Origin: a virus
Reading direction: 5' to 3' (one strand)
IMG/VR virus record: IMGVR_UViG_3300032053_003791
Location: 1 to 22,075 of that record
Length of the DNA: 22,075 bases
The notes under the pieces were generated by a model, which saw only the letters and a program-made list of their open reading frames with translations, had not been told where the DNA came from and did no database searches. Position numbers and translations under genes: made by a program. Position 1 is the stretch's first letter, and every line of letters begins with the position of its first letter. Of the stretch, positions 180 to 18,682 are shown in pieces.

Positions 180-281
180 ATAGTCGATTTTAATTAATCA
201 GCTAAAAACTTCATAAATTGTGATATATACTTATATGGTGACATTAATGTTAAGCATATTTATAAGTTTTTGGAGGATACC
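180..281 (+). promoter_or_regulatory. Intergenic leader with possible promoter and strong ribosome binding site
   Basis: This gap holds no convincing ORF. A CATAAATT box at 212-219 lies about 70 bases before the next gene and is one mismatch from the TATAAAT boxes seen upstream of other units in the window. A strong Shine-Dalgarno sequence, TGGAGG at 271-276, sits five bases before an ATT at 282. There is no other good ribosome binding site in the gap, so this site decides the start of the next gene. Confidence 0.4.
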
Positions 282-971
282 ATTTTAAAATTATTACAAA
301 TAGGAAACAATTTACCAGCATCTTTTATTTGTGACCCTAGTTCGGAATTTATGCCCGGTATGGTGGCCGAGTTAACTGTTATTGGCAATCAAGTAATGGC
401 AACTGTAAGTAAAGGTACAGCTCCTATTGGCATTATTGATGAAATAAAAACAAAAGCATTTACAAATGTTTCTTGGAATGAAACAATTATAGTGCCAGCA
501 ACTGGAGTGCCAGGTCCAGGTGGACGACCAGTAACACCAGTTGATATTAAAGCAGAATTAAAACATCCAAATGTTATTGGTTCAAGCTTTCTATCAACAA
601 TTGATGTATTATTAAATACAAATAATGGTGTAATTACATTTGTTGCCGGAACAGAATTAAATTATGATTTATTAGGAACTGGGTCTGCAAACGCAATTAA
701 AACAATTGTTAATTATACATATTTTGTACCTAATATTCCTGGTGATGATAGCACTTTAGGATCTGGACGTATGACTGTATGGTTTAATAGAATATTTTTC
801 CAAACAGATATGTTTGAGTCAAATCAACAATATCCAGTTAATGCTAATTTATATGTTTCTGAAAATGGAATATTAACTACTAGACGTCCTAGCACTATTC
901 ATCCTGCTGTAGCACTATTAACAGCTCCACCGAGCGCCTTCAGTAGCATGGTGGAGGTTATGTGGTATTAA
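282..971 (+). CDS. Probable virion (decoration-like) protein, apparently starting on ATT
   Basis: A 229-residue, beta-rich looking protein with no signal peptide or membrane segment. The usual start-codon search gives TTG at 270 (233 aa), but that TTG overlaps the TGGAGG ribosome site and has none of its own. ATT at 282 is correctly spaced from TGGAGG and gives a protein beginning with fMet-LKLLQ, matching the beginning MALKLLQ of the gene at 8574. Near its C-terminus it has LYVSENGILT, which parallels LYATSAGLLT in the 8574 product. These shared ends suggest two distant paralogues. Small beta-rich proteins with such an LYVSxxGxLT stretch are common among phage head decoration or other surface proteins, so a virion role is likely; the exact role is inferred. 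Confidence 0.7.
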   Translation: MLKLLQIGNNLPASFICDPSSEFMPGMVAELTVIGNQVMATVSKGTAPIGIIDEIKTKAFTNVSWNETIIVPATGVPGPGGRPVTPVDIKAELKHPNVIGSSFLSTIDVLLNTNNGVITFVAGTELNYDLLGTGSANAIKTIVNYTYFVPNIPGDDSTLGSGRMTVWFNRIFFQTDMFESNQQYPVNANLYVSENGILTTRRPSTIHPAVALLTAPPSAFSSMVEVMWY

Positions 972-1013: not shown

Positions 1014-1922
1014 ATGGACAAATTGCATTATTTATACAAAATAACAAATCAAATTAATGGTAAAATTTATATCGGACAGAGCATTAATACACAAAAAAGA
1101 TGGGCGGGACATAAAAATCAGGCTAAACAACCCAATCCAAATCAATTAATTAGCATGGCTATTAAGAAATATGGCACTGATGCTTTTGAGTTTGAAGTTA
1201 TTGCTACTTGTAAATCTTATGAAGACGCCAACTGGACAGAAGAAGAGCTTATCAGGCAATATAGTTCTTTAGCTAAAGATGATAAAGGTTATAATTTATC
1301 TCTTGGCGGAGAAACTGCGCCTAAATCTGAAGAGTGGAAACGAATGCATAGTGATTGGCATGCATCTCTAACTCCTGAAGAAAAAGAAATAAGAAGCGCA
1401 GCCCTTAAAAAAGCGACTCTTAATCAAATTGCCACTCAAGGTCATCCGGCTAAAGGAACTAAGAGAACTCCCGAACAATTGCAAACATTAAGCAAAGCCC
1501 GTCGAGATCATCCTGTTGATTATACTTTTGAAAAAAGACAAAACATGTCTCAAGCTCATATTGGCATCAAAGATACAGAAGAGACTAAAAAGAAAAAAGC
1601 TGAGAGGGCAACTTTAGCTTGGAATAAGCGTAATACTGAACGTTTTGCAACTGGTGAAATTAAGTGCAATGTACCTGGTTGTGAGGTTAAAAATAAAGCT
1701 TCTTATAGAATTATTGATGGTATTAGATATTGTTCAATGCATGCTACACGCCTTTTAGTTAAAGGTTCATTTGATAAATCACCAGCCCATAATAAAATAT
1801 ATTTTACAGAAGAGCAAATCAAAATAATATTATCAGGAATTAAATCAATTAGTTCAATGTCTAAAGATTTTGGAATAAGCGAGGGCGTTATTAGTAAATT
1901 TAAAAAAGCTAAAAGCCAATAA
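1014..1922 (+). CDS. GIY-YIG family homing endonuclease
   Basis: Predicted free-standing site-specific DNA endonuclease of 302 residues. The N-terminal GIY-YIG nuclease domain (about 1-100) shows YLY at 6-8 and YIG at 19-21, a candidate catalytic Arg29 in KRWAGHK, a candidate metal-binding Glu76 in WTEEELI, and the closing GYNLSLGG. The middle (about 100-210) is Lys-rich with NUMOD3-like segments such as KGTKRTPEQLQTLSKARRD. A zinc-knuckle candidate follows with Cys218, Cys223, Cys240 and His243, and the C-terminus (about 265-300) reads as a helix-turn-helix (SISSMSKDFGISEGVISKFK). The start ATG has a good AAGGAG eight bases upstream. It lies alone between structural genes, as freestanding homing endonucleases often do. 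No intron or intein is evident around it. All catalytic residues appear intact, so it may be active. Confidence 0.92.
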   Translation: MDKLHYLYKITNQINGKIYIGQSINTQKRWAGHKNQAKQPNPNQLISMAIKKYGTDAFEFEVIATCKSYEDANWTEEELIRQYSSLAKDDKGYNLSLGGETAPKSEEWKRMHSDWHASLTPEEKEIRSAALKKATLNQIATQGHPAKGTKRTPEQLQTLSKARRDHPVDYTFEKRQNMSQAHIGIKDTEETKKKKAERATLAWNKRNTERFATGEIKCNVPGCEVKNKASYRIIDGIRYCSMHATRLLVKGSFDKSPAHNKIYFTEEQIKIILSGIKSISSMSKDFGISEGVISKFKKAKSQ

Positions 1923-1979: not shown

Positions 1980-3251
1980 ATGACTTTTAAGCATACAAAA
2001 TTTGATGAATCAAGTGTAATGCGTTCTTTTGAGAAAACCGCTAGAAATAAAGGTTTAATTGAAGAAGATGTAATGGTTCATGGTTTAATAAAGCAAGCTA
2101 AAAGTAAAATAGATTTAAAACCATCTGAAGATTTTACTTTAAATATTGTAAAGTTATGTGAAGGATTAAGATCCAAAGGTTTTAATAAATATGCAAATGA
2201 AATTGAAAATAAATTCATGACATATAAGAGAGCCGAGACATTATATGATATTCATAAAGAGACTGGTGAGGATGTAGTTGATCAGGCGCATCCAGATGGA
2301 AGTCATAAATTGGAAGGTGTTGATGGAGATTCAACATTTGAAACAATTTTAGATCAACATGAAATGATTAAGAAGGTTGTTGAAAAGAATCCAACCGGAA
2401 AATTATCAAATAACAAAGATATATTAAAAGCGGTTAAGGTTGCATTAGGACAAAATAATCCGCCAGCAACAAAAGCCAGCATAGAATTATATAAAATAAA
2501 ACAAAATTTTATAGCAACAACAACTTCTTTAATTTTATATGCTAACCAAACATTGCCACATTTACCAAATCAAAACTCACCAGGAGATTGGATTCCATTT
2601 ATGATAGGTGATGAAGAAAAATATGAAGCTTTCATGGCAGCTTTACAAAATTTAAAAACTGCAAGTACATCTGCAGATTCTTATTTTTCAGATATTGATA
2701 CTGCAAAAAAATCAGTAAAAAATGCAGAATATTCTGCCAAAAGTTTATTATATAGTACGCCAAATCATATTAAATTTAAAGATCAAAGAAATGCATTTTC
2801 AACAGGAATAGGGTTTTATCAACAACAATGGCAGAGTTTAGATAATATTTCTGTAACAGATATTAATACTCCAAATGAAACTCCTGCCGCCCCAGGAGTG
2901 CAAGAAGACAAGGTAAAACTAAAATCATTGGTTGACGGCGCTCTACAATCTGTTCGTGCGAAAGCTACTAAAGAACATAGTGATTTACAAGAGCATAAAG
3001 ATTATTTAAAAACAAATAATCCTACAGGATTACAAAAAGCACAAGAATTTGTTAATTTTATAGTACAATTACGAGATAATTTACAAAATATAAGTGCAGC
3101 TTTATTAGTTCCAGAAAACACTATAGATAAAATTTTTGCAGGAAGAGGAATTTTTTCAAAAGTAACATCTGTGGATGCATTTAATATGGTTATGGTAGAA
3201 GTTAATGCTTATATAAAAAAATATGATGCTTATTGGGCTTCAAAAGGATAA
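1980..3251 (+). CDS. Unknown phage protein, first of five-gene block; paralogue of the 7105 gene
   Basis: A 423-residue soluble, mostly helical protein that I do not recognise as a named family. The N-terminus (MRSFEKTARNKGLIEED) resembles that of the 7105 product (FDSYVKIALEKDFDKDADD). Further in, both share a spaced set of motifs: an AHP tripeptide (DQAHPDG here, EDAHPKP there), then an I-x3-V-x-K-x-P-x-G-x-L segment (MIKKVVEKNPTGKLSNNK here). A segment before it, LRSKGFNKYANEIENKF, looks like a helical hairpin of a kind I associate with hypothetical proteins of environmental phages, from memory only. A Pro-rich linker lies near residues 297-310. It is followed after seven bases by the next gene, so co-transcription is likely. 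A virion role is inferred from its position among structural genes. Confidence 0.8.
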   Translation: MTFKHTKFDESSVMRSFEKTARNKGLIEEDVMVHGLIKQAKSKIDLKPSEDFTLNIVKLCEGLRSKGFNKYANEIENKFMTYKRAETLYDIHKETGEDVVDQAHPDGSHKLEGVDGDSTFETILDQHEMIKKVVEKNPTGKLSNNKDILKAVKVALGQNNPPATKASIELYKIKQNFIATTTSLILYANQTLPHLPNQNSPGDWIPFMIGDEEKYEAFMAALQNLKTASTSADSYFSDIDTAKKSVKNAEYSAKSLLYSTPNHIKFKDQRNAFSTGIGFYQQQWQSLDNISVTDINTPNETPAAPGVQEDKVKLKSLVDGALQSVRAKATKEHSDLQEHKDYLKTNNPTGLQKAQEFVNFIVQLRDNLQNISAALLVPENTIDKIFAGRGIFSKVTSVDAFNMVMVEVNAYIKKYDAYWASKG

Positions 3252-3258
3252 TACATAA

Positions 3259-4257
3259 ATGTCTAAAAAAGAATATTATCAAAATATTATTAATATAATA
3301 AAAAATGCTCAAGATGCAATTCCTGGGTCTGGAGGTCCCGCGACTGGAGGTGGAGGTGCTGGAGCGGGTCCTGGTGTTGGAATGCCAAATAAACATGTTA
3401 GAGATATGCAAACTGAAATGAAAAATCTTGCAGCAACGGTTACTCGTGCAGGCTTAAATAAAGATAAATCAGTTACTCAAAGTAGAGATGCTTTTAATAA
3501 TTTCATAACTGAACAATATATTGGCACGGCTAAAACTAAAGGAGTAACTCATACCACTGAACCATTAACTCCAGAAGAACAAAAAGAACATGGTGGTGAC
3601 GAACCAACAGAAATGCATGCTGTTCTTGAAACTTTTAAAAGATTAAGTTCCACAACTGGCGGTTTAAGTGCAGATGGAAAATGGAATGATAATACAAATA
3701 ATGGTTTGTTAAACATTGTTGCATTTGCAGAAGCATTATTAAGAGTTGAGGCAGATTTAGGCTATAGGGCACAAGGATTTGATACTAATCAACTTAAAGC
3801 ATTAAGAAATGCAGTCCCAACCGACTGGTATACTACAGAAGAGCTTTTTAAAAAGAATCCAAGAGAACCAGAAAAAAGAGCAAATAAATTAGTTCCTATT
3901 TTACAAAATTTAACAAGATTTTATAGAAATTTTAATACTGGAATTATGAAGGGCACAGGATTTAGGGGATATATTGAAGGGCGTCAACCATTTGAAACCT
4001 ATAATAATAAATCAGATCCTGCGCAATTAACTATTGAAGATCAAAATAAACTACAAACTGGAGCAGGAATATCAACAGCTAAAGTTCCAGTTACTAATAT
4101 AACTACTTATGATAATCAAAAAGTGGATTCTATTCCGCTTGTGGCATTAACAAGTAAAGAAAAATTATTTGAATGGGCTAAAAGTATTGGATATACTACG
4201 CCACAACAAGTGGCAAAGTTATTAGTCTCAATTAAAGGTTCTTTGGGGGCAGCATAA
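3259..4257 (+). CDS. Unknown phage protein with Gly-rich linker and DGKW motif
   Basis: A 332-residue protein. It starts with MSKKEYYQNIINIIKNAQD, which resembles the start of the 5992 product (MSEKIEYYQN...KSAQD). A flexible Gly/Pro/Ala linker (GSGGPATGGGGAGAG) at about 23-40 separates this head from the body. Around residues 135-160 the stretch GLSADGKWNDNTNNGLLNI recalls the DGxxGxxT pattern of peptidoglycan-binding domains (PG_binding_1), but the key Gly after the DG motif is an Asn, so the resemblance is weak. The rest is helical without recognised motifs. AAAGG inside the end of the preceding gene serves as a ribosome site. Its TAA overlaps the next ATG by one base, a sign of translational coupling. 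Function unknown. Confidence 0.8.
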   Translation: MSKKEYYQNIINIIKNAQDAIPGSGGPATGGGGAGAGPGVGMPNKHVRDMQTEMKNLAATVTRAGLNKDKSVTQSRDAFNNFITEQYIGTAKTKGVTHTTEPLTPEEQKEHGGDEPTEMHAVLETFKRLSSTTGGLSADGKWNDNTNNGLLNIVAFAEALLRVEADLGYRAQGFDTNQLKALRNAVPTDWYTTEELFKKNPREPEKRANKLVPILQNLTRFYRNFNTGIMKGTGFRGYIEGRQPFETYNNKSDPAQLTIEDQNKLQTGAGISTAKVPVTNITTYDNQKVDSIPLVALTSKEKLFEWAKSIGYTTPQQVAKLLVSIKGSLGAA

Positions 4258-5990
4258 TGTCTTTTATATATAATGATAAAAATTTAATTGAGAGCCTATT
4301 AAAAGCTGGTCTTGATTTTGAAAACAAATTCAACAAAAGGGCAGTAGACCCTAATGCTCCAGCTGCTGGAACGCCAGTGCAAACAGCGCCTCCAGGATCT
4401 TCTGTTGCGACTCCTGCTGCCGCTGGCTCTCCCGTTATGCCACCTACTGTTACTCCAGGTTCACCTGCGCCGCTTACACCTAATAGAACCCCTGAAGATA
4501 TTGCAAAACAATCAATTACTGAAAATATTGCACTTGCCAAAAAATTATTAGAACATCGTTTAAGAGAAGTTGATCCTAAATCAGCAGAAACTGCTAGTCA
4601 TATTAGTTCTGATACTGATACTGGATTAAAAATGACAGATTTAGTTAATTTAGGAACTTTGATTAGATTTTTAGCAACAAATAATATTAAATATGATGGG
4701 CAACCAATTGCTTATAAATATGATCCAAACAATCAAGCAATAACAAAATTAAATGATGATAATAATGCAGTTTTTATTTCAGCAACAACCGGAACTGAAG
4801 TTGATTTTCAAAAAGAAGAAGAAGGTTACATTGCTAATAAAACTCTTTTAGCTAATTATTTAAAACATTTAAGAGCAAAATCACAAGGTAATCCAGTATT
4901 TAGAACCCCAGTTGGCAAGATGATTGATCAACTTAATATGAGATTCCCAACTCCATTAGTTGAACCAGTTAAAAAATCTGAACCTGGTAAGCCCGCTGAA
5001 CCTGCTGATAATGTTGTTTTAGATAGTTTAGTTAAAATTATGACTATTCATGCGGGAAATCCACAATTAAAAGGACCTGTAGTATTAACTGCAAGAGATA
5101 TTAGAACCGATACAAATTTAAATGCTTGGTTAAGTTCCAATAATATCGCCTGGCAAATTGGTGAAGAGCTTGGCAAATGGACGGCTGATGAGAGGACTTT
5201 TGTTTTTGGTGATGTAAAGAATTATAATAAATGTGGCATTGTTCATGTTTTATATACTAGAGCTAGAAATTTGGTTGGTAATGCACAGACGCCAGAACAA
5301 AAAGCTAATTATACATATTACATGACTCAAATGCTTGAAACTGGTCGTCAAATGACTGGTCCAGATGGAACTGCTTGTCCTGTAACTACTGCTCCTGGTG
5401 CAACCCCACAACCAACACCGGGAACTACGCAGCCTGGACAACCAGGAAAGCCAGGAGAATTAACTCCAGAACAAAATAGGCAACGTCAGAAGTTTTTCCA
5501 AGCGGCTTCACAATGGCTACCATTTGAAAATGGTGTAATTAGTTTTGGAAACATTCAAAGATTTTTGAATCAAATTTCCAAATTAGCTGAAGAGCCAACT
5601 TTTGTAACAACGCTTAATGCTTTGACTGCAAGATTTAATCAAATGTATGGTGAAGTCAATGCTATGTTACATGTTCCATCAGATAGATTTGTTCTTACTC
5701 GTTCCGCGTCATCACTTAATCAAATGATGAAACCAGGAGTAAGCCCAGTTGCATTAATAAGAAATCTAGAAGGAATAATTATTTTAGGTAAACAGGCAGT
5801 TGATTTATTTAGAGGAACATTTGCTGATCAGATGTCAAAAGAAACAAAAGCAATATTTCTTAATGCTGTAAATGAACATATTGGTTATGGAAGCGATGCA
5901 AGCCCAGGTGGATATGCGGGAAATAATTTGGCAGATCTTAGAGCGCTTGCAGCAGATTTGCCTTCATCTTTTCAAAAAGCAATGAAATAA
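4257..5990 (+). CDS. Large unknown phage protein with two Pro/Thr-rich linkers
   Basis: A 577-residue protein built from three parts: a short helical head (MSFIYNDKNLIESLLKAGLD), a Pro/Ala/Thr-rich linker at about 31-80, a central globular region (about 85-375), a second Pro/Gly/Thr linker near 378-405, and a helical C-terminal region (about 406-577). No catalytic motif or membrane segment is visible. The body contains single cysteines only. It begins one base inside the preceding stop codon (TAATG) with GGGGGC upstream as ribosome site, and ends one base before the next ATG. The head-linker-body layout matches the 3259 product, suggesting that these proteins are anchored through their N-terminal helices in the same assembly. 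I do not recognise the family. Confidence 0.8.
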   Translation: MSFIYNDKNLIESLLKAGLDFENKFNKRAVDPNAPAAGTPVQTAPPGSSVATPAAAGSPVMPPTVTPGSPAPLTPNRTPEDIAKQSITENIALAKKLLEHRLREVDPKSAETASHISSDTDTGLKMTDLVNLGTLIRFLATNNIKYDGQPIAYKYDPNNQAITKLNDDNNAVFISATTGTEVDFQKEEEGYIANKTLLANYLKHLRAKSQGNPVFRTPVGKMIDQLNMRFPTPLVEPVKKSEPGKPAEPADNVVLDSLVKIMTIHAGNPQLKGPVVLTARDIRTDTNLNAWLSSNNIAWQIGEELGKWTADERTFVFGDVKNYNKCGIVHVLYTRARNLVGNAQTPEQKANYTYYMTQMLETGRQMTGPDGTACPVTTAPGATPQPTPGTTQPGQPGKPGELTPEQNRQRQKFFQAASQWLPFENGVISFGNIQRFLNQISKLAEEPTFVTTLNALTARFNQMYGEVNAMLHVPSDRFVLTRSASSLNQMMKPGVSPVALIRNLEGIIILGKQAVDLFRGTFADQMSKETKAIFLNAVNEHIGYGSDASPGGYAGNNLADLRALAADLPSSFQKAMK

Positions 5991-5991
5991 A

Positions 5992-7041
5992 ATGTCCGAA
6001 AAAATTGAATACTATCAAAATGCATTAATTACTCAAATTATTGGACAAGATATTGATCCAATGGTTAAGAGTGCCCAAGACGTTTCTGTTCAAGGCATTA
6101 TTGGTGGTGTAAAAAATTATGTACTATCAAATATAAATCCAGAAAATCCTACTGCAAGCGTATTATCCATGTTTGCGCCTATGGTTATTACTAAAATATT
6201 TCAAGCAATGGGATTTGGATGGATTAGTTATTTATTTGGAATTTTAGCAAGTGTTTTTCGAGTTGATGTTGCAAATATTATAGCTTCAGTATGCAGTGGT
6301 GTTAAGTCATTAGTTTCTGGCGGAAAACAAACAAGTTCAGAACAAATAAGTGGTGTAGTAGATGATGTTATTTCAAGTCACGCTGGACAGTCAACAGAAG
6401 AGTTAGGCGCAAAATCTTTTGAAATGCAAATAAGAGACGCAAAATTATTTAAACTTGCATTAATAGATTATAAAAATTCATTAGAGAATAATGTTGTAGA
6501 TTTTAATAAAACATCTAGTAGGACATCTGTAACTAGAACTACAGGACTTCATATTCTTGGTGGAATTTTAAAATGGGTGATGTTAACAATAGCTGGTGCT
6601 GGAGGCATGCTTCTTGCTGGTGATGCAGTTAGAAAAACTCTTCAATTAGATAATGCTTTGGATAATACCCTACAACATGGCAAAGAAAAAGATAAGCCAT
6701 CAATGTCACCAAATCAACCATTACAAGTGCGTCCCAAAATTATTCAAACCAAATATAAACTTAATCCAATTTATAAAGATATTCCTCTTAATCCTGGTTG
6801 GACCGAATCAATTATAAATAATAGGCAGAATATTGAAAATATGGTAATGACATTTGCCAATGAAGTATATCTTGGATTGGAAAATAAAGATAGTCAAATG
6901 AAATCTTCTATTGGATTTAATGGTGTTGTAGATAGTATTGAAGATTTAAATAGGAAATCGACTGGAAATCGTATTGTATCTATTCCTGAAATGTTTAAAA
7001 CTAAAAAAGATATAGTAGATTCATTTATTGAAGATCTATAA
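5992..7041 (+). CDS. Unknown phage protein with two hydrophobic (membrane-type) regions
   Basis: A 349-residue protein whose N-terminus (MSEKIEYYQNALITQIIGQD) resembles that of the 3259 product. A long hydrophobic region at about 58-101 (MFAPMVITKIFQAMGFGWIS then YLFGILASVF) could hold one or two membrane helices, and a second at about 188-210 (VMLTIAGAGGMLLAG) could form another. The C-terminal 140 residues are soluble and polar. Membrane-type segments in a gene embedded among virion genes are consistent with an ejected or membrane-penetrating virion protein, or less likely a holin-like protein (it is too long and not small-holin shaped). The gene begins one base after its neighbour and is followed by a 63-base gap holding a possible promoter. 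Confidence 0.75.
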   Translation: MSEKIEYYQNALITQIIGQDIDPMVKSAQDVSVQGIIGGVKNYVLSNINPENPTASVLSMFAPMVITKIFQAMGFGWISYLFGILASVFRVDVANIIASVCSGVKSLVSGGKQTSSEQISGVVDDVISSHAGQSTEELGAKSFEMQIRDAKLFKLALIDYKNSLENNVVDFNKTSSRTSVTRTTGLHILGGILKWVMLTIAGAGGMLLAGDAVRKTLQLDNALDNTLQHGKEKDKPSMSPNQPLQVRPKIIQTKYKLNPIYKDIPLNPGWTESIINNRQNIENMVMTFANEVYLGLENKDSQMKSSIGFNGVVDSIEDLNRKSTGNRIVSIPEMFKTKKDIVDSFIEDL

Positions 7042-7069
7042 TATCATTTTATCTGAAATCATAGAATGC

Positions 7070-7091
7070 TGCATAATATAATATATAAATA
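7070..7091 (+). promoter_or_regulatory. TGCATAATAT element and TATAAATA box before 7105
   Basis: TGCATAATAT (7070-7079) is followed by TATAAATA (7084-7091), an exact match to the T4-type late promoter box. It is only 14 bases from the ATG at 7105, so a transcript starting just after it would have a very short leader. The same decamer occurs 38 bases before the ATG of the paralogous gene at 1980; here it is 35 bases before. Function is inferred. Confidence 0.35.
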
Positions 7092-7104
7092 ATTGGATAA
7101 AAAT

Positions 7105-8457
7105 ATGACTAGTAGACGCAGCGAAATATTTGATAGTTATGTAAAAATTGCTCTGGAAAAGGATTTTGATAAAGATGCAGATGACATTAAATCAAAATTA
7201 GAAAAAAATCCTCGCGCAGATTCTCATTCCATTTCTGATATTGAAGCTTTATATGGCGTTAAACCAAATACTCCAAAAGATATGGAATATAAACATAACA
7301 TTATGGAAGACGCTCATCCTAAGCCAATGGTTATTTCTCCAGCTTATGATAAAATTAATGGATTAGTTGAAAATAATATTGAACGTCAAAATATTATGAT
7401 TAATATTGTTAATAAAGTTCCAAATGGACATTTAACAGGTCATAAATATGCTCAACACGACTTATTATTATCATTAGTTAGAGTTGCTAATGATATGGAT
7501 AATAATGATGCAGAAGAATTAAGAAAATTAGCTGATGTTTGTGCTGAACAATTAACAAATTCAAAAAAAAAAGTAATTATTAAGGACGCCTTCGCGCCTT
7601 TAGCTTTTATTGGCATTGGTCTTGGAGTAAAGGCTTTGGCTGGAATTACTGCGGGAATAATTGGAACTATTTGGGTACAACAACATTGGCCAGCATTTTC
7701 AGAAGGATTTGAAACGGGTTATAAAAATCTTCAAGATCAACTTAATGATTTTATAAAATCAAATACTAATTGGGGCGTTGGTGCCCAATATAAAGAAAGT
7801 TTTTTGAAAGAAATTTCAACAATACAAGGTGAACTTTCTAATTTTTACAATCAATATAAAGCAATCGAAGCATATATTGTAAAAATTGATAAACCATCAG
7901 GAGATAAAGAATTATTAGAATATGCTCAAACTGACAAGGGCAAACAAGATGCTCAAGCTTTTGAACAACTAAAACAAGCAGCATTATCTATAAGTGAAAA
8001 ATTAACTGATTTATCATCTAGATTTAAAGATGAAAATTATAAGCTTCGTCAAATTCAAGAAAAAGGATTTATTACTAAATTAATTGATAAAACTCAAGTA
8101 TTGCATGGCGGAAAAGGTTTATTTACAGACGATTTTGATGATGTTCGCGATGCTATAGTCTCTTTTGAAGAAGGTGTTAAAAGTTTAGTTGGCATTGTTA
8201 ATGGTGGCGAAAGAGTTAAAGAAAAAGCAGAAACAAAAGCAACCTCTATGCTTGATAAAATGAAATCTGCATTTACTGGAGCTAAAGATAAAGCTTCAGA
8301 AATAGTTAGTGGGGCTTCTGGTAAAGCTTCTGAAATGGTTGGTGATAAAACTCCAGATAATAAACCAACCAATAAACCCACGAAAAAACCATTTAATCCA
8401 TCAAGTGATCTTGATGAATTACAAAAACAATTAAATAAAGCAATGCAAGTTAGATAA
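7105..8457 (+). CDS. Unknown phage protein with a central hydrophobic segment; paralogue of the 1980 gene
   Basis: A 450-residue protein. I choose ATG at 7105 over the in-frame TTG at 7093, because TTG has no ribosome site and would begin inside TTGGAT, which can serve the ATG. The N-terminal half (about 1-155) carries EALYGVKP, the motif EDAHPKP, and NIVNKVPNGHLTGHK, paralleling the 1980 product. A hydrophobic Gly/Ala/Ile-rich stretch at about 162-191 (FAPLAFIGIGLGVKALAGIT) could be a membrane helix pair. The following region is helical and probably coiled coil. The last 80 residues are a repetitive Lys/Ala/Ser segment (KDKASEIVSGASGKASEMVG) and a Lys/Pro/Thr linker. It is probably a virion protein; a role in the host envelope during DNA delivery is a hypothesis. 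Confidence 0.78.
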   Translation: MTSRRSEIFDSYVKIALEKDFDKDADDIKSKLEKNPRADSHSISDIEALYGVKPNTPKDMEYKHNIMEDAHPKPMVISPAYDKINGLVENNIERQNIMINIVNKVPNGHLTGHKYAQHDLLLSLVRVANDMDNNDAEELRKLADVCAEQLTNSKKKVIIKDAFAPLAFIGIGLGVKALAGITAGIIGTIWVQQHWPAFSEGFETGYKNLQDQLNDFIKSNTNWGVGAQYKESFLKEISTIQGELSNFYNQYKAIEAYIVKIDKPSGDKELLEYAQTDKGKQDAQAFEQLKQAALSISEKLTDLSSRFKDENYKLRQIQEKGFITKLIDKTQVLHGGKGLFTDDFDDVRDAIVSFEEGVKSLVGIVNGGERVKEKAETKATSMLDKMKSAFTGAKDKASEIVSGASGKASEMVGDKTPDNKPTNKPTKKPFNPSSDLDELQKQLNKAMQVR

Positions 8458-8573: not shown

Positions 8574-9251
8574 ATGGCATTAAAATTACTTCAGCCCGGC
8601 GTGCAACCCCTTGGGCAATTTGACGGATATGATTCAGAAGTATTAACTCTTTTAGGCGGTGAAGTTGTAACTTTCACCTCAGTTCCAGTAGCAGGAACTG
8701 ATAAGGCAGCATCAGACGCATTTGACGGATACGTCAATACAAGCGGTGTTGCAAGACGCCCAGTAGTTACAAAAACCCTTACCTCTGGTAAGCGTCCATT
8801 AATGTTAGCTGATGAAGGAACCTCTGGTTACGGTACATTGTTTGGTACAGTAGTTGGTGGAACTGTTGGACAAGTTGCAACTGGTGGAACAGTATTAGGA
8901 CCACACACAGCAACTGGTTCTGGTAAAGTTACTTGCTGGGATAAACCAGGTCTTTACGCAGTATCCTTAGATGCATGTGATTTAACTGTCTCTACAGGTC
9001 TTCAACCAACCAACACCACTCTTGATGCAGGCTCTGCTCTTTATGCAACCTCTGCTGGCTTGTTAACTCCGAACTCAGCATTGTCATTCCAAGCTGGTAT
9101 CGTAGTTGGTCGCTTCATCGAATTCACCACAAATGGTGCATTAGTAAATACCCCAAACAAGTTAGTTCAAGCACTTAACAGCCCATCAGGCTCAGTAGCT
9201 CTTGCACAAAGCTTTGCCTTTGCCGTGTTTAGCTTCAATCAAGTTAACTAA
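8574..9251 (+). CDS. Probable head decoration or other abundant virion protein
   Basis: A 225-residue, Gly/Thr/Val/Ala-rich and apparently all-beta protein directly upstream of the major capsid gene. It starts MALKLLQPGVQPLGQF, like the 282 gene product, and contains LYATSAGLLTPN followed by AGIVVGRFIEF near the C-terminus, an arrangement often seen in capsid decoration or similar surface proteins. The codon choice is richer in C-ending codons (TTC, AAC, CGC, ACC) than in the neighbouring unknown genes, which suggests high expression. It has a good ribosome site (AGGA, eight bases upstream of the ATG), a structured leader, and a strong terminator after it, so it is probably its own transcription unit. 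Other abundant structural roles, such as a tail protein, cannot be excluded. Confidence 0.78.
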   Translation: MALKLLQPGVQPLGQFDGYDSEVLTLLGGEVVTFTSVPVAGTDKAASDAFDGYVNTSGVARRPVVTKTLTSGKRPLMLADEGTSGYGTLFGTVVGGTVGQVATGGTVLGPHTATGSGKVTCWDKPGLYAVSLDACDLTVSTGLQPTNTTLDAGSALYATSAGLLTPNSALSFQAGIVVGRFIEFTTNGALVNTPNKLVQALNSPSGSVALAQSFAFAVFSFNQVN

Positions 9252-9460: not shown

Positions 9461-10474
9461 ATGAATATGTTTAATAATCAAGGACAAGTAAATGCAAGCT
9501 CTTTAAAAGACGCTTTAACTACGCTTGTGAAGTACGCTTCGATCCTCGAAGATAACCAACCATCTAATATGGGATTAGCTGGACAACCTTCTCTTTCAGA
9601 TGATAAGAGGGATGAATTAATTGCCAGAGCAATTACCACACAAGAAGGTAAAATTGCTTTAGCTCAAGCAATGGCAAACCCAATTCGTAGAAACTTAGAT
9701 TACCACGGTATTGCCCGTAGAGCCTTAGTGGTTGATCCTCTTCCACAAGGTGCAATGCCAACATATGATAGAGATATCGATGTTGCCGCTGTAGTTATTT
9801 CAAGCAACGGCTCTGGTCCAGAATCAAGAGTATTCGGTGACAGAGTAGTTGTTCCTGAATTCGAAATTTTTGCAAACCCAACTGTAAGAATTGCAGAAGT
9901 CAAACGTCGTAGATTTAACGTAATTGACAGAGCGGTTCAAAAAGCTCGTCAAGAAATTATGGCACAAGAAGACGCAAACGTTTTCGCAGCCATCGATGCA
10001 GCTGCGACAGTTGAAAATACTGCTCAAGATATTGCAGATGCAGGCTTGTTAAAGAGAGATTTAGTAGAAATTAAGCAACAAATTGATCGTTGGGACTTAG
10101 TAACAACCAAGTATTTCATGAATATCAATGAATTTACTGATATTTTGAAGTGGGGTGCTGGTGGTGGACAAGGTGTTGGTGGGGGTGAATTCGATCCCGT
10201 TACAATGCGCGAAGTTCTTCAAACAGGTCTTTATGCTCACATTTGGGGCGCGGACATTATGGTATCTAAGATCGTTCCACCAGGAACTGTTTATGGATGC
10301 TCTGATCCAGAATTCGTTGGTGTTATGCCAGTTCGTCAAGACATCGAAGTATTACCAGCAGATGAACCAAAACAACTTAAATTAGGTTGGGTTGTATCAG
10401 AAATCATAGGCATCGCAATAGTTAACCCACGCGGCGTAGCCTTGGGCAGGAAAAGCGTTGTAATTGGAGCCTAA
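9461..10474 (+). CDS. Major capsid protein (HK97 fold)
   Basis: Forms the icosahedral shell of the virion. The protein has 337 residues, a usual length for an HK97-type capsid protein. The stretch NPIRRNLDYHGIARR (73-87) followed by PLPQGAMPTYDRDID (93-107) is of a type I know from major capsid proteins of large tailed phages. The later pattern also fits the fold: a long charged helix (RAVQKARQEIMAQEDANVFA), an alternating middle part, and a C-terminal beta-rich part ending VVNPRGVALGRKSVVIG-like. The first 60 residues are polar and helical and could include a cleavable delta-like domain, but no cleavage site can be shown. Codon use is the most C-rich in the window, and it is flanked by its own leader and a strong terminator, fitting a very abundant product. 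A second ATG at 9467 is possible but too far from the ribosome site. Confidence 0.88.
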   Translation: MNMFNNQGQVNASSLKDALTTLVKYASILEDNQPSNMGLAGQPSLSDDKRDELIARAITTQEGKIALAQAMANPIRRNLDYHGIARRALVVDPLPQGAMPTYDRDIDVAAVVISSNGSGPESRVFGDRVVVPEFEIFANPTVRIAEVKRRRFNVIDRAVQKARQEIMAQEDANVFAAIDAAATVENTAQDIADAGLLKRDLVEIKQQIDRWDLVTTKYFMNINEFTDILKWGAGGGQGVGGGEFDPVTMREVLQTGLYAHIWGADIMVSKIVPPGTVYGCSDPEFVGVMPVRQDIEVLPADEPKQLKLGWVVSEIIGIAIVNPRGVALGRKSVVIGA

Positions 10475-10763: not shown

Positions 10764-11336
10764 ATGACAAAAATACTCATAGTAATTTTAATGCAAATAT
10801 TATTAAGTTCAGCACCAATAAAAATCAGCCCATATCTTTCAGGAGAAGAACAAGAAGCAATATTACAATCAGAAACTCAACGCTATCAAGAAATTTCAGA
10901 AGCAATTGTTAGGGTTGCTCAAAATACAAAACAATTAGAAAGCAATACAGAGTTCGATATAATTAAAAAAATTGCATTATTATCAGCAATTGCAGTAACT
11001 GAATCTGGTTTAAATAAAGACATTCAATTAGGTAAAAGGCGTGGAGATTGGGGTCGTTCAGTTTGCTTAATGCAAATGAATATAGGAAAAGGTAAAACTC
11101 CTGAAGGTTGGACAGCAGAAGATTTAGTAACTGATTTAGATAAATGCCTAACAACTGGTTTAAGAGCCGCAAAACAGTCACTAGGAGGCTGTAGTAATTT
11201 AAAAAATTATATAGATAGATTGGGTGGCTATACAACTGGTAAATGTTTGGATAATGAACCTGAATCAAGAAAAAAAATGAATTTAATGTTTTATTACTAT
11301 TCAAAATTGTTATATCAGATGAAAAAGCAAAAATAA
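10764..11336 (+). CDS. Secreted lysozyme/lytic-transglycosylase-like protein
   Basis: Probably cleaves cell-wall glycan chains. The 190-residue protein has an N-terminal signal sequence (hydrophobic stretch TKILIVILMQILLSS, likely cleaved near residue 17) and then a helical domain. The catalytic glutamate is most likely Glu80 in AVTESGLNKD, followed by RRGDWGRSVCLMQMNIGKGK (92-111), the usual ES(G/R)...GRS.CLMQ(I/M)N signature I know from lysozyme-like phage proteins. Cysteines at about 101, 130, 144 and 161 may form disulfides, which suits an extracytoplasmic enzyme. The ORF ends at TAA 11336. It could be the lysis enzyme (secreted through the host Sec pathway) or a tail-associated cell-wall enzyme; the signal peptide favours lysis. 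No holin is visible next to it. Confidence 0.8.
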   Translation: MTKILIVILMQILLSSAPIKISPYLSGEEQEAILQSETQRYQEISEAIVRVAQNTKQLESNTEFDIIKKIALLSAIAVTESGLNKDIQLGKRRGDWGRSVCLMQMNIGKGKTPEGWTAEDLVTDLDKCLTTGLRAAKQSLGGCSNLKNYIDRLGGYTTGKCLDNEPESRKKMNLMFYYYSKLLYQMKKQK

Positions 11337-12750: not shown

Positions 12751-12798
12751 ATGAGTAAATATAAAATTGCTAAAAATATAGGACTAAATATTGAGTAA
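12751..12798 (+). CDS. Possible 15-residue leader peptide overlapping the start of the first fibre gene
   Basis: ATG at 12751 opens a frame encoding [15 protein letters not shown], ending in TAA at 12796-12798, seven bases beyond the TTG start of the fibre gene. It has a weak ribosome site (GAGA). It may couple translation to the fibre gene. Alternatively it is the true N-terminus of the fibre protein, joined by a +1 shift at GAG-TAA-G, which would give ...[16 protein letters not shown]. It may also be chance. Confidence 0.3.
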
Positions 12799-15700
12799 GG
12801 TAAACGCAGATCAAATAAAAGGTGTGCCTACAGGATCTGTTGGTGGTAGCACTGGTGCGACCGGTCCACAAGGTCCACAAGGATCGCCAGGTGTTACTGG
12901 ACCTAGAGGAGCTACTGGATATCAAGGAGTTGATGGTGCAACTGGAGCAATAGGTCCTCAAGGTCCAACTGGACCTGCGGGAGCCCCACAGGGCTCTCCT
13001 GGCGTAACTGGACCGACAGGACCCCAGGGACCTACTGGTACAATTGGAGCGACAGGAACACAAGGTCCAACCGGTCCAAGAGGAGCTACAGGTTATCAAG
13101 GAATTGATGGAGCTACAGGAGTTACTGGACCTCAAGGACCAACCGGTAGCATTGGTACTACTGGAGCCCAAGGAGCTACTGGACCAACAGGTCCTCAAGG
13201 ACCAACTGGAACTATTGGAGCTACTGGTCCAGTAGGCAATCCAGCAACTTATGGCGAATTAAGTGTAACAAATAATGTAACTGGACAAACACTTACTACT
13301 TTAAATACTTATTATCAAATTACACAATTTGATACTATTGCGAATGCATTTGGAACAACGCCAAGCATTGCTTCTAATAATATTACAATTAATATTGCCG
13401 GCTGGTATCAAACAATAGCAAGTTTATCTTGTGGTGTTAATTCTGGTACACCAAGATTTACATTTTCTCTTTTTGTTAATGGCGTTGAGCATATAAATGC
13501 TAGATTAGAACAAGATATTGGATCTGCCGATCATGAAAGTTTAACATTAAATGATTTAAATTATTATAATGTTGGCGATGTAATTGATCTTAGAGTTTCA
13601 TGTGATAATAATAGTAAAATACTAACTGTTGTACAGGGAAACTTTATTGTTTTTAATATTGGTGCTACTGCTACTGGTGCTACAGGTCCTCAAGGTGCTA
13701 CAGGTACAATCGGACCTACAGGATCTATCGGGGCTACAGGTACAATTGGTTCTACAGGACCTACTGGATCAATTGGGGCTACTGGAACAATAGGAAGTAC
13801 CGGACCAACAGGACCGCAAGGATCAACTGGAACCATTGGATCAACCGGATCACAAGGACCTACTGGTACTATAGGATCTACCGGACCAACAGGTCCGCAA
13901 GGTCCAACTGGAACTATTGGTTCAACTGGTCCAACCGGACCAACCGGACCTGTTGGATCTACAGGATCAATAGGCGCAACGGGATCTATTGGTCCTACTG
14001 GTACAATAGGATCAACTGGATCGCTGGGACCAACAGGCTCTATCGGCGCTACAGGAACTATTGGTTCTACTGGACCAACAGGTCCACAGGGTCCAACTGG
14101 TACAATTGGAGCTACTGGTCTTCAAGGTCCAACTGGTACAATTGGAGCTACCGGCACAATAGGAAGTACCGGACCAACTGGACCACAAGGACCTACCGGA
14201 ACTATTGGATCTACAGGTCCAACTGGAAGTATTGGTCCGACCGGAACAATAGGATCTACTGGATCTCAAGGACCAACTGGTACCATTGGATCAACAGGAT
14301 CTACTGGAACTGCCGGTCAAAATGCCTTTAATACTACTCCGACTTTCGTAACTAATAATGCTGGTTTAGTTTCTGTAGTATCAGGTGCCTTTAAAGGCTG
14401 GGAACAAGTAGGTCAAGCAGTATATATAGCTACTGGTGGTTATTTCATAGTTACTGGTATTTCAGGAAGCAATCTTGTATTAAGTAATTTAGCTTCTAAC
14501 TTACCTTCTGGTATAACGATTAATGCAGCAAGTATTTCTCCTGCAGGACTTCCAGGAATAACTGGAGCCACAGGAACTATTGGATCTACAGGAAGCGTAG
14601 GACCTACAGGAAGCGTAGGACCTACAGGAAGCGTAGGACCTACAGGAACTATAGGATCTACTGGTCCTACTGGACCGCAAGGACCAACTGGCACTATAGG
14701 AAGCATTGGACCAACTGGAACTATCGGCTCTACAGGACCTACAGGTCCTCAAGGACCAACTGGAACTATTGGATCTACTGGACCAACTGGTCCTCAAGGA
14801 CCAACTGGAACTATTGGATCTACTGGACCAACTGGACCTCAAGGACCAACTGGAACTATTGGATCTACTGGACCTACTGGAAGTATTGGACCTACAGGAT
14901 CAATCGGAAGTACTGGAACGCAGGGAATTCAAGGTTCTCCCGGTGTTACAGGCGCACAAGGTCCAACTGGACCAATTGGTGGCGGACCTCAAGGCGCTCA
15001 AGGTTCTCCAGGTCAAAATGCCTATAATATTACCCCCACTTTCGTAACTAATAATGCTGGTCAAGTAGCGGTTGTTTCTGGTGCTTTTCAAGGATGGGAA
15101 CAAGTAGGTCAAGCAGTTTATATCGGGACTGGTGGATACTTTATAGTAACAGGTATTTCTGGAAGCAATTTAGTATTAAGCAATCTCGCATCTAATTTAC
15201 CATCTGGCATTACAGTCAATGCTTCTAATATATCTCCAGCAGGTTTACCAGGAATAACTGGAGCTACCGGCACAATTGGGTCAACAGGTCCTACTGGATC
15301 TATCGGATCTATCGGAGCTACTGGAACTATCGGAAATACCGGACCAACAGGACCTCAAGGACCAACTGGAACTATTGGATCAACTGGACCTACTGGACCA
15401 CAAGGTCCTACCGGCACTATTGGATCAACAGGATCGATAGGACCAACTGGAAGTATTGGATCAACAGGATCAACTGGAACTGCCGGTCAAGATGCTTTCA
15501 ATACTACTCCTACCTTCGTAACAAATAATGCTGGTAATGTTTCTGTAGTATCAGGTGCCTTTAAAGGTTGGGAGCAAGTAGGTCAAGCGGTATATATAGC
15601 TACTGGCGGTTACTTTATAGTAACTGGTATTTCAGGAAGCAATCTTGTATTAAGTAATTTAGCTTCTAATTTACCTTCTGGCATTACTATTAATGCTGCA

Positions 15701-18682
15701 AACATTTCTCCAGCAGGTTTACCAGGAATTACTGGAGCTACCGGTACAATTGGTTCAACAGGTACTATTGGAGCAACAGGATCAATCGGTGCAACAGGAA
15801 CGATCGGAAGTACAGGACCAACTGGACCTCAAGGACCTACCGGCACAATTGGATCTACCGGTCCAACCGGTTCAATTGGACCAACTGGAAGTATTGGATC
15901 AACTGGCAGTATTGGTTCAACAGGATCTACTGGAACTGCTGGTCAAGATTCCTTTAACACTACTCCTATTTTCGTAACAAATAACGGCGGTTTAGTTTCT
16001 ATTGTTTCTGGAGCCTTTAAAGGTTGGGAGCAAGTAGGGCAAGCGGTATATATAGCTACTGGTGGATACTTTATCGTAACAGGTATATCTGGAAGTAACT
16101 TAGTACTTTCTAATCTTGCTTCTAATTTACCTTCAGGTATTACGATTAACGCAGCCAGCATATCACCAGCAGGTTTGCCAGGAATAACTGGAGCTACAGG
16201 AACAGTTGGACCAACAGGCACAATTGGGTCAATAGGTCCTACTGGATCTATCGGAGCTACTGGTACAATCGGAAGCACAGGACCTACTGGACCACAAGGT
16301 CCAACTGGAACTATTGGATCAACAGGTCCTACAGGAAGTATTGGACCTACTGGATCAATTGGATCAACTGGCTCTACTGGTACAGCAGGACAAGATGCAT
16401 TTAACACTACTCCTACCTTCGTAACTAACAATGCAGGTAATGTTTCTGTAGTTTCAGGTGCCTTTAAAGGATGGGAACAGGTAGGTCAAGCCGTTTATAT
16501 AGCTACTGGCGGTTACTTTATTGTAACTGGTATATCTGGAAGTAACTTAGTATTATCTAACTTAGCTTCTAATTTGCCTTCTGGTATAACTATTAATGCA
16601 GCCAGTATATCTCCAGCAGGTTTGCCTGGAATTACTGGAGCTACTGGCACAATTGGTTCAACAGGACCTACTGGATCTATCGGGGCTACTGGAACTATTG
16701 GGTCAACAGGACCTACTGGATCTATCGGAGCTACTGGAACTATTGGTTCAACAGGACCTACAGGTCCACAAGGTCCAACTGGAACTATTGGATCAACAGG
16801 ACCTACTGGACCGCAAGGACCAACAGGAACTATCGGTAGTACAGGTCCAACTGGAAGTATTGGACCTACAGGATCAATCGGAAGTACCGGATCTACTGGA
16901 ACTGCTGGTCAAAATGCCTATAATACTACTCCTACTTTCGTAACGAATAATGCTGGTCAAGTAGCGGTTGTTTCTGGAGCTTTCCAAGGTTGGGAACAAG
17001 TAGGTCAAGCAGTATATATAGCTACTGGTGGTTATTTTATTGTTACAGGCATTTCAGGAAGCAATCTCGTATTATCTAACTTGGCTTCTAATTTACCTTC
17101 TGGTATAACTATAAATGCTGCAAATATTTCTCCTGCAGGACTTCCAGGAATAACTGGAGCTACAGGAACTATTGGCGCAACCGGTTCTGTCGGACCTACA
17201 GGATCTATTGGTTCAACCGGCTCTGTCGGACCTACAGGAAGCATTGGATCTACCGGAAGTATTGGTAGTACTGGACCAACTGGACCTCAAGGATCTACTG
17301 GCACAATCGGATCAACTGGACCAACTGGTCCTCAAGGACCAACTGGAACTATCGGATCAACAGGACCTACCGGACCTCAAGGACCAACTGGTACAATTGG
17401 ATCCACCGGCTCTATTGGACCTACCGGATCAATAGGTAGTACAGGATCTACTGGTACTGCTGGACAAGATGCTTTTAATACAACGCCTACTTTCGTTACT
17501 AATAATTCGGGTCTAGTTTCTGTTGTCTCTGGAGCTTTTAAAGGATGGGAGCAAGTAGGGCAAGCTGTCTATATAGCTACAGGTGGCTACTTTATTGTCA
17601 CAGGTATATCTGGAAGTAACTTAGTACTTTCTAATCTTGCTTCTAATTTACCTTCTGGTATTACTATTAATGCAGCAAATATTTCACCAGCAGGACTTCC
17701 TGGAATTACTGGAGCCACAGGAACTATTGGGCCAACCGGTTCTGTGGGATCTACAGGAAGCATTGGTTCAACTGGATCAATCGGTGCAACCGGAACAATT
17801 GGAAGCACAGGACCTACTGGACCACAAGGACCAACTGGAACTATTGGATCAACTGGACCTACAGGTCCTCAAGGTCCAACCGGAACTATAGGATCAACAG
17901 GACCTACAGGAAGTATCGGACCTACAGGAAGTATCGGATCAACAGGATCAACTGGAACTGCAGGACAAGATGCCTTTAATACTACTCCTACCTTCGTAAC
18001 AAATAATAGCGGTTTAGTTTCTGTTGTTTCAGGCGCGTTTAAAGGATGGGAGCAGGTAGGTCAAGCCGTTTATATAGCAACAGGTGGTTACTTTATAGTA
18101 ACTGGTATATCAGGAAGTAACTTAGTATTATCTAATCTTGCGAGTAATCTTCCAAGTGGCATTACAATTAACGCTGCCAGCATATCTCCAGCAGGACTTC
18201 CTGGCATTACAGGAGCTACGGGAACAATTGGACCTACAGGAACTATCGGAAGTACGGGACCTACTGGACCAAAAGGAGCAACTGGAACAATTGGACCAGG
18301 TGCTGGAGCTATTATATATTGGGGAGCAGACAGTATATTAACTACAACTACAACAAGATATTTGTATCCAGGATATTCTACAAGTAATGCAGCTACCAAT
18401 GATATATATAGAGTTATAGTTCCAAGAGCCGGAACACTTAAAAATATGAATATTATGCAGAATAGTACAAGCACATCTGCAAATAATGTTGTATATACAG
18501 TATTGGTAAATGGTGTTGCTTCAATATTAACAGTAACAATTGCTGGCAATGTATCTACTGGTTCGGATACAACGGATACTGTGGCATTATCTAGTGGTGA
18601 TCAATTGACTTTACAAGTAACTAAAGCTGCCTCCGTATCTCCTGCCGTACAACAAGTTGTTGTATCTGCGGAGTTCGTATGA
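12791..18682 (+). CDS. Giant collagen-like tail fibre protein with eight repeated modules
   Basis: A 1963-residue fibre protein, probably a trimer reaching from the virion to bind the cell. The start is TTG, with AGGA (12780-12783) seven bases upstream. Order of parts: a short head ([11 protein letters not shown]); Gly-X-Y collagen (about 15-150); a beta jelly roll of C1q/TNF-like type (about 154-291; YGELSV..., then [14 protein letters not shown]..., [13 protein letters not shown]); collagen again; then eight copies of an 81-residue module alternating with collagen; and a C-terminal beta domain (1841-1963; [20 protein letters not shown]) of a type frequent at the ends of phage fibres. The collagen is dominated by units like [15 protein letters not shown], so Thr and Ser are abundant, few charged residues occur, and glycosylation is possible. 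The TGA overlaps the next ATG as ATGA. Highly repetitive DNA makes assembly errors here possible. Confidence 0.9.
14591..14644 (+). repeat. Exact 18-base tandem repeat, three copies
   Basis: GGAAGCGTAGGACCTACA occurs three times head to tail at 14591-14608, 14609-14626 and 14627-14644, encoding GSVGPT each time. Its exactness contrasts with the codon-scrambled collagen around it, so it is probably a recent slippage expansion. Confidence 0.95.
14735..14869 (+). repeat. Near-exact 45-base tandem repeat, three copies
   Basis: Three head-to-tail units at 14735-14779, 14780-14824 and 14825-14869 encode [15 protein letters not shown]. They differ at only a few third positions. The same 15-residue unit is the commonest collagen block throughout both fibre genes. 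Confidence 0.92.

What the first reader, a model, noticed from the sequence alone, without database searches (positions are those of the whole stretch)
1980..8457. Five-gene block of unknown proteins: candidate internal or ejected virion complex
Genes at 1980, 3259, 4257, 5992 and 7105 are packed with gaps of 7, -1, 1 and 63 bases. The 5992 and 7105 products carry hydrophobic membrane-type segments, and the 3259 product has a weak peptidoglycan-binding-like DGKW motif. Three have flexible Pro/Gly-rich linkers. They sit next to capsid genes rather than tail genes. Together this would suit a set of proteins that travel in the virion and act in the host envelope at infection, comparable in logic to the T7 core proteins but without visible sequence relation.
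Basis: inference. Interest (0 to 1): 0.58.

Follow-up and report, generated by a model that had tools for sequence, protein, structure and literature searches.

The report
Head-interior gene block of huge phages
Five neighbouring genes of unknown function lie in the head-building gene cluster of a widespread group of very large phages and most likely encode proteins packed inside the virus head, possibly to be injected into the host; virion proteomics is needed to decide.

Summary
In detail: five genes (g1-g5: 1980, 3259, 4257, 5992, 7105) are packed with gaps of 7, -1, 1 and 63 bases. They are real, conserved genes. The window is a fragment of a huge-phage clade (relatives' contigs up to 481 kb) whose capsid protein resembles Bacillus phage G gp27. 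Where contigs are long enough, the order g1-g5, decoration-like gene, major capsid protein (MCP) is kept, with one exception (L043). In a 481-kb relative the block lies between the head maturation protease and the MCP, away from tail genes. No family library or named phage record knows these proteins. New: g1 and g5 are paralogues; hydrophobic segments are confined to g4 and g5; all five families begin with a short segment ending in K-x-A or K-x-G-Q, seen also on the MCP, the protease and a scaffold-like protein but not on two decoration-like proteins. I read this as a capsid-targeting/propeptide tag, so the products are probably prohead-interior proteins. Ejection into the envelope is plausible (hydrophobic g4/g5; an exchangeable wall-hydrolase gene near the portal) but not shown. 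The peptidoglycan-binding reading of DGKW is not confirmed.

The parts
1980..3251 (+). g1, 423 aa: N-terminal segment, conserved domain (about residues 10-182) shared with g5, variable helical remainder
3259..4257 (+). g2, 332 aa: N-terminal helix 3-18, Pro/Gly linker, helical body with invariant D139, W142, T146
4257..5990 (+). g3, 577 aa: conserved first residues MSF-I/L-Y, Pro-rich linkers, fast-diverging body
5992..7041 (+). g4, 349 aa: two hydrophobic segments and a conserved C-terminus
7105..8457 (+). g5, 450 aa: N-terminal segment, domain shared with g1 (about residues 5-154), one hydrophobic segment, helical remainder
2010..2054 (+). g1 N-terminal segment, residues 11-25, candidate capsid-targeting tag
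   Evidence: K.A in residues 6-45 in 31/31 and 35/36 further homologues
3265..3312 (+). g2 N-terminal helix, residues 3-18, candidate tag
   Evidence: 25/30, 26/32
4269..4349 (+). g3 N-terminal segment, residues 5-31, candidate tag (often K-x-G-Q)
   Evidence: K.A 18/27, K.[AG][QAS] 23/27; K.A 25/38
6013..6078 (+). g4 N-terminal segment, residues 8-29, candidate tag
   Evidence: 38/40, 25/28; failed the leave-one-out ranking (302 of 672)
7111..7164 (+). g5 N-terminal segment, residues 3-20, candidate tag
   Evidence: 49/49, 23/26
6235..6291 (+). g4 hydrophobic segment 1, residues 82-100
6562..6618 (+). g4 hydrophobic segment 2, residues 191-209
7573..7629 (+). g5 hydrophobic segment, residues 157-175
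   Evidence: present at this threshold in 38/49 homologues
3673..3696 (+). g2 DGKW region, residues 139-146
   Evidence: no family match
270..971 (+). dec0, 233 aa: conserved gene upstream of the block, named decoration-like by position and look only; lacks the tag
   Evidence: K.A 0/24; 0/49
8574..9251 (+). dec, 225 aa: gene between block and MCP, named decoration-like by position only (phage G has a capsid decoration gene there); mostly lacks the tag
   Evidence: 6/59; 5/24
9461..10474 (+). major capsid protein, 337 aa, with an N-terminal extension that carries the tag
   Evidence: PHROG 2522 E 6.8e-77; 54% to phage G gp27; tag 56/58

Best explanation
The five genes encode proteins of the prohead interior of a huge-phage clade. 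Each begins with a short segment ending in K-x-A (or K-x-G-Q) that I propose works like the T4 capsid-targeting sequence: it brings the protein into the prohead and is perhaps cut by the head maturation protease encoded upstream. The mature proteins would stay in the head with the DNA, and at least g4 and g5, which have hydrophobic segments, would act in the host envelope after ejection, as the ejection proteins of T7, P22 and giant phages do. Shown: genes, order, head-module position, hydrophobic segments, recurrent N-terminal segment, g1-g5 paralogy. Inferred: targeting, cleavage, presence in virions, ejection, envelope action.
For: Position between head maturation protease and MCP in G001, same layout read by eye in eight further records. 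Fixed gene order and co-occurrence. N-terminal K.A in 31/31, 25/30, 18/27, 38/40, 49/49 homologues of g1-g5 and 56/58 of the MCP, against 6/59 dec, 0/24 dec0, repeated on further distinct sequences. Head cluster 11/19 against 103/653 elsewhere in G001, Fisher 5e-5; 7/14, p 0.0035, without g1-g5. Leave-one-family-out profile ranks g5 8, MCP 12, g1 24, g2 28, g3 30 of 672. Conservation falls right after the N-terminal segment in g1, g3 and g5. Hydrophobic segments within the G001 head cluster only in g4 and g5. A wall-hydrolase gene, SLT or glucosaminidase, near the portal in the same cluster.
Against: No proteomics; no homologue of known role. K.A is a weak pattern: 92 of 518 G001 proteins have it N-terminally, about the internal rate of 86, and 25% of internal windows of the head proteins have it, so composition explains part of the excess. 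g4 failed the leave-one-out test, rank 302 of 672. Gene 11367, outside the block, has it in 34/50. g5 lacks a segment above threshold in 11/49. L043 has the MCP but not g4 or g5 in its 78-kb record. The clade's closest named relative by MCP, phage G, has no detectable g2, g4 or g5 N domain.
Confidence: 0.48

Rival explanations
1. Assembly core or inner shell: the five proteins are scaffold/core or inner-shell glue proteins that shape a very large capsid and are then degraded or stay in place; they are not ejected and do not act on the host.
For: Location between protease and MCP is where related phages have one or two scaffold-like genes (read by eye); the N-terminal segment is shared with MCP and protease; P1 DarA and Hdf line the inner capsid surface (passages of PMC12810830).
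Against: Hydrophobic segments in g4 and g5; a separate Asp/Ser/Lys-rich scaffold-like gene exists upstream.
Confidence: 0.24
2. Internal counter-defence set: the block is packaged and ejected, like the P1 Dar proteins, mainly to protect the incoming DNA rather than to build an envelope channel.
For: P1 packs at least six Dar proteins, DarA after N-terminal cleavage (passages of PMC12810830); fast divergence of g2 and g3.
Against: No known anti-restriction family found (the PADLOC library was not searched); hydrophobic segments do not fit; the whole set is fixed, whereas defence genes tend to vary (recalled).
Confidence: 0.1
3. Prohead initiation at the host membrane: g4 and g5 anchor proheads to the inner membrane during assembly, the other three support them; none is a virion part.
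For: Proheads of giant phage SPN3US accumulate on the inner membrane (abstract of PMC7411985); g4 is hydrophobic in 40/40.
Against: Does not by itself explain the shared segment in all five.
Confidence: 0.1
4. Lysis or other non-virion function of some of the genes, merely encoded in the head cluster.
For: In phage G annotated endolysin genes lie shortly upstream of the decoration and MCP genes.
Against: No lysis family supported for the five (one holin PHROG at E 0.14 for g1 and one spanin PHROG in 2/46 g5 members at best E 0.0014 are weak); five-gene order fixed with the capsid genes.
Confidence: 0.08

Closest known systems
Internal/ejection proteins of giant myophages (SPN3US, phiKZ)
   Same: Large contractile-tailed phages; several head-interior proteins with N-terminal propeptides and a prohead protease (passages of PMC5694885 and PMC10052503)
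   Different: No sequence relation found; SPN3US propeptides are mostly longer than 100 residues and its cleavage motifs differ; virion location shown there, not here
T4 internal proteins with capsid-targeting sequence
   Same: Short N-terminal segment, 10-20 residues in T4 (passage of PMC5694885)
   Different: Sequence of the segment differs; targeting and cleavage shown for T4 only
T7 ejectosome gp14-gp15-gp16
   Same: Neighbouring genes, membrane-type segments in a small member; a wall-cutting activity in the set (passages of PMC8954989)
   Different: Five genes, no relation, contractile-tailed huge phage; wall hydrolase is a separate gene near the portal; no envelope channel shown
P1 Dar internal proteins
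   Same: A set of at least six internal head proteins, one N-terminally processed (passages of PMC12810830)
   Different: No relation tested; hydrophobic segments here
Bacillus phage G
   Same: MCP 54% identical; decoration gene next to it
   Different: No g2, g4 or g5-N-domain relative in the whole record and none of the five in its first 45 kb; its annotated MCP lacks the N-terminal extension

Membership tests
Internal/ejection proteins of giant phages | Present inside the mature head | not testable with these tools
   No virion proteomics for this clade
Internal/ejection proteins of giant phages | Enter the host with the DNA | not testable with these tools
   Needs infection experiments
Internal/ejection proteins of giant phages | Encoded with head genes and a prohead protease | tested here: met
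T4-type capsid-targeting sequence | Short conserved N-terminal segment shared by several head proteins | tested here: inconclusive
   Recurrent K-x-A segment, but weak pattern, g4 failed leave-one-out and composition contributes
T4-type capsid-targeting sequence | Removed by the prohead protease | not testable with these tools
   Needs mass spectrometry
T7/P22 ejectosome proteins | Sequence or fold relation to gp14, gp15 or gp16 | tested here: inconclusive
   No match by PHROG or PDB sequence; folds of g2 and g5 only, without clear match
T7/P22 ejectosome proteins | A member with membrane-type helices | tested here: met
   g4 40/40 and g5 38/49 by hydropathy
Peptidoglycan-binding domain (g2) | Match to a PG_binding family above the curated cut-off | tested here: not met
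   Best E 0.1 (PG_binding_3 in 4 of 30 members)

The most novel reading that the evidence does not exclude
The clade builds a five-part delivery complex inside its head. A common N-terminal address tag, shared with the capsid protein, the protease and the scaffold-like protein, loads all parts into the prohead; membrane-active g4 and g5 and the g1-g5 paralogue pair are then ejected, together with an exchangeable wall hydrolase encoded near the portal, to carry a genome of some 0.4-0.5 Mb through the envelope. It would be an ejectosome of independent origin in contractile-tailed huge phages.
Probability: 0.25. Interest if true: 0.65.

Novelty: new variant of a known kind. Interest (0 to 1): 0.45.

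Why it matters
Huge phages carry hundreds of unannotated genes, and what their large heads contain besides DNA is mostly unknown. A fixed five-gene set with a testable N-terminal segment gives a short list of candidate head-interior proteins, and a sequence rule that proteomics can confirm or reject and that could find further cargo in metagenomic genomes with no cultured host.

Tried and rejected
Peptidoglycan-binding domain in g2: no family match above cut-off. The AlphaFold2 model (pLDDT 79) is mainly helical; Foldseek's best PDB match has E 0.31, and the VIA-align list is led by fumarase/adenylosuccinate-lyase type bundles at Z about 8, which that tool calls possibly only a common arrangement. 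This neither proves nor excludes a wall-binding fold.

g5 fold: mean pLDDT 68; best VIA-align Z 11.1 to a chemoreceptor ligand-binding helical bundle, within the range the tool warns about for helical proteins. The viral structure library gave one strong hit each for g2 and g5, both uncharacterised proteins of uncultured phages, probably orthologues.

PDB sequence searches with profiles A1-A5 gave only weak matches, mostly coiled-coil or helical proteins, best E 0.0014 for g5. PHROG scans of all members of the five alignments gave scattered hits, each in at most 3 members.

A helix motif that I recalled as common in huge-phage proteins was looked for by pattern in G001: strict form none, loose form in 4 proteins; dropped.

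Relatives in cellular genomes: 62 pattern matches, none confirmed. Relatives of g2, g4 and the g5 N domain in the whole records of phage G, Tunturi_5, Rctr197k and LR745208: none (whose output notes that an empty answer without a positive control shows nothing; the A4 search did match two clade records). All five profiles against about 40-45 kb around the MCP of each: none. These show no detectable relative, not absence of a functional counterpart.

Papers: 8 searches returned nothing that I recognised as describing this block. Listings and starts of abstracts were seen, passages of PMC5694885, PMC8954989, PMC12810830 and PMC10052503, and abstract and outline of PMC7411985; no paper was read whole.
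Full report
What the window is. The window is a 22,075-base IMG/VR virus record. The gene at 9461 is a major capsid protein (MCP; PHROG 2522, E 6.8e-77), 54% identical to Bacillus phage G gp27 over residues 45-327. A scan of viral contigs with it found 367 relatives, of which the best 80 (86-99% identical) were kept; some lie on contigs of 430-481 kb.

Observation. The five ORFs and their gaps (7, -1, 1, 63) are as described. In 25 of the 80 MCP-anchored loci g1-g5 and the following decoration-like gene (dec) were all extracted complete; in these the five genes are tightly packed, mostly with a gap of about 40-55 bases before g5 and of 107-167 before dec. The other loci are mostly cut by contig ends. 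Counting only loci with enough sequence upstream of the MCP, dec was found in 66/68, g5 in 48/49, g4 in 44/45, g3 in 38/38, g2 in 35/35 and g1 in 33/33. The misses are L043 (dec, g5, g4) and L081 (dec). In the whole 78-kb record of L043 neither g5 nor g4 was found, so that contig breaks the rule, though it is a fragment.

Co-occurrence without the MCP as anchor. Scans with g5 (113 relatives, 80 kept) and g1 (111 relatives, 80 kept) brought 56 and 77 new loci. Where sequence was long enough every neighbour was found (g5-anchored: g4 55/55, g3 52/52, g2 50/50, g1 47/47, dec 53/53, MCP 45/45; g1-anchored: dec0 68/68, g2 58/58, g3 52/52, g4 47/47, g5 46/46, dec 44/44) and the order held in 56/56 and 77/77. 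These contigs overlap with the MCP-anchored set and belong to one clade; they are not independent lineages.

Rate of change. Relatives are 86-93% identical in the MCP (one at 99%), mostly 50-70% in dec, about 30-45% in g5, about 30-38% in g4, 21-34% in g3, 22-32% in g2, and mostly 47-58% in the first 160 or so residues of g1.

Genome context. In the 480,838-base relative G001 the order is terminase (PHROG 675, E 5e-61), portal (PHROG 16240, E 1e-49), a 411-aa gene, a wall hydrolase, small genes, a 1242-aa head maturation protease (PHROG 18299, E 1.8e-12 over residues 105-213), a 236-aa Asp/Ser/Lys-rich protein, 71- and 306-aa genes, dec0, g1-g5, dec, MCP. Fibre-like genes follow, and sheath-, tube- and baseplate-like genes some 35-60 kb later (named by look and position, recalled, not searched). 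The same layout was read in G006 and seven further records, where genes were matched by eye from their first residues.

A wall-hydrolase slot. The gene after the 411-aa gene is an SLT transglycosylase in L252 and L255 (Pfam above cut-off) and, below cut-off, in L256 and G001; it is a glucosaminidase in L251 and L253. L257 gave no family; L254 and G006 were not scanned but look like the glucosaminidase type. So two unrelated wall hydrolases exchange in one place of the head cluster. Two of the SLT proteins (L252, L255) also match the PHROG of internal virion proteins with endolysin domain weakly (E 7.3e-5 and 1.2e-5). Whether the enzyme is in the virion or is the endolysin cannot be told here.

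Anatomy. g1 and g5 share an N-terminal domain: hhalign probability 94.6, E 7e-8 for a single comparison; the g1 profile finds g5 in the G001 ORF set with E 1.6e-4 and no other gene. g1 is single-copy in 10 of 10 large records. Hydrophobic segments are found in g4 (40/40) and g5 (38/49), rarely in g1-g3; in G001, 63 of 518 proteins of 100 aa or more reach the threshold, and within the head cluster only g4 and g5 do. Conservation is high in the first 10-20 residues of g1, g3 and g5 and drops after them; in g2 the contrast is milder and in g4 small.

N-terminal segment. All five families have a short N-terminal stretch ending in K-x-A or K-x-G-Q. K.A in residues 6-45: g1 31/31, g2 25/30, g3 18/27, g4 38/40, g5 49/49, MCP 56/58; dec 6/59, dec0 0/24, gene 12147 0/45, gene 11367 34/50. 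On further distinct sequences: g1 35/36, g2 26/32, g3 25/38, g4 25/28, g5 23/26, MCP 10/15, dec 5/24, dec0 0/49. In G001 head-cluster proteins have it in 11/19, fibre/tail 7/47, rest 96/606 (Fisher 5e-5); leaving out g1-g5, 7/14 (p 0.0035). But 25% of internal windows of the same head proteins have it too, so part of the excess is composition, and genome-wide there is no N-terminal excess (92 of 518 against 86 expected). A leave-one-family-out profile ranked g5 8, MCP 12, g1 24, g2 28, g3 30 and g4 302 of 672. I read this as moderate support for a shared tag, not proof. The MCP carries it in an N-terminal extension that the annotated phage G gp27 lacks.

Known families. Nothing convincing in Pfam or PHROGs, in the PDB by sequence, or in the phage collection by tblastn (no match at E 1 for any of the five). 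Structure predictions of g2 and g5 gave no telling match.

Mechanism. T4 targets internal proteins into the prohead with 10-20-residue N-terminal sequences removed by the protease; giant phages do likewise with longer propeptides and carry many ejection proteins (passages of PMC5694885, and PMC10052503). T7 ejects gp14, gp15 and gp16, with membrane helices and a wall-cutting domain (passages of PMC8954989). P1 packs at least six Dar proteins (passages of PMC12810830). The block fits this class of head-interior proteins best; I give 0.48 to interior proteins that are at least partly ejected and 0.24 to assembly core or inner shell.

Limits. All evidence is sequence-based and from uncultured phages of one clade; the host and its envelope are unknown, and no virion data exist here.

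Noticed in passing
window 1014-1922: GIY-YIG endonuclease gene (PF01541, E 5.2e-10) between dec0 and g1; a similar gene sits at the same junction in L251, L255, L256 and L257, looks broken in L253 and G006, and is absent in G001, L252 and L254: a likely homing site.
   Followed up: partly
window 12791-18682 and 18679-22074: Two very long collagen-like G-x-T proteins with 8 and 4 copies of a conserved module spaced about 150-230 residues apart; probably fibres.
   Followed up: partly
L098:16571-17719; L251:7961-8944; L252:9007-10068; L253:6681-7697; L255:6641-7789: Wall-hydrolase slot near the portal that alternates between SLT transglycosylase and glucosaminidase in relatives.
   Followed up: partly
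L099:2066-5794: Head maturation protease domain sits in an unusually long protein of about 1150-1240 aa in all nine records read (PHROG match tested in three); the rest of it is unassigned.
   Followed up: no
L043:6443-7492: MCP without the block upstream; neighbours differ from all other loci and some look like homing endonucleases.
   Followed up: partly
window 10764-11336: 190-aa gene with a hydrophobic start that looks like a transglycosylase to the eye, no family match, found only in L006 among the MCP-anchored relatives.
   Followed up: partly
window 9461-9590: The MCP has an N-terminal extension of about 40 residues absent from the annotated phage G gp27, a possible scaffold or propeptide region.
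   Followed up: partly
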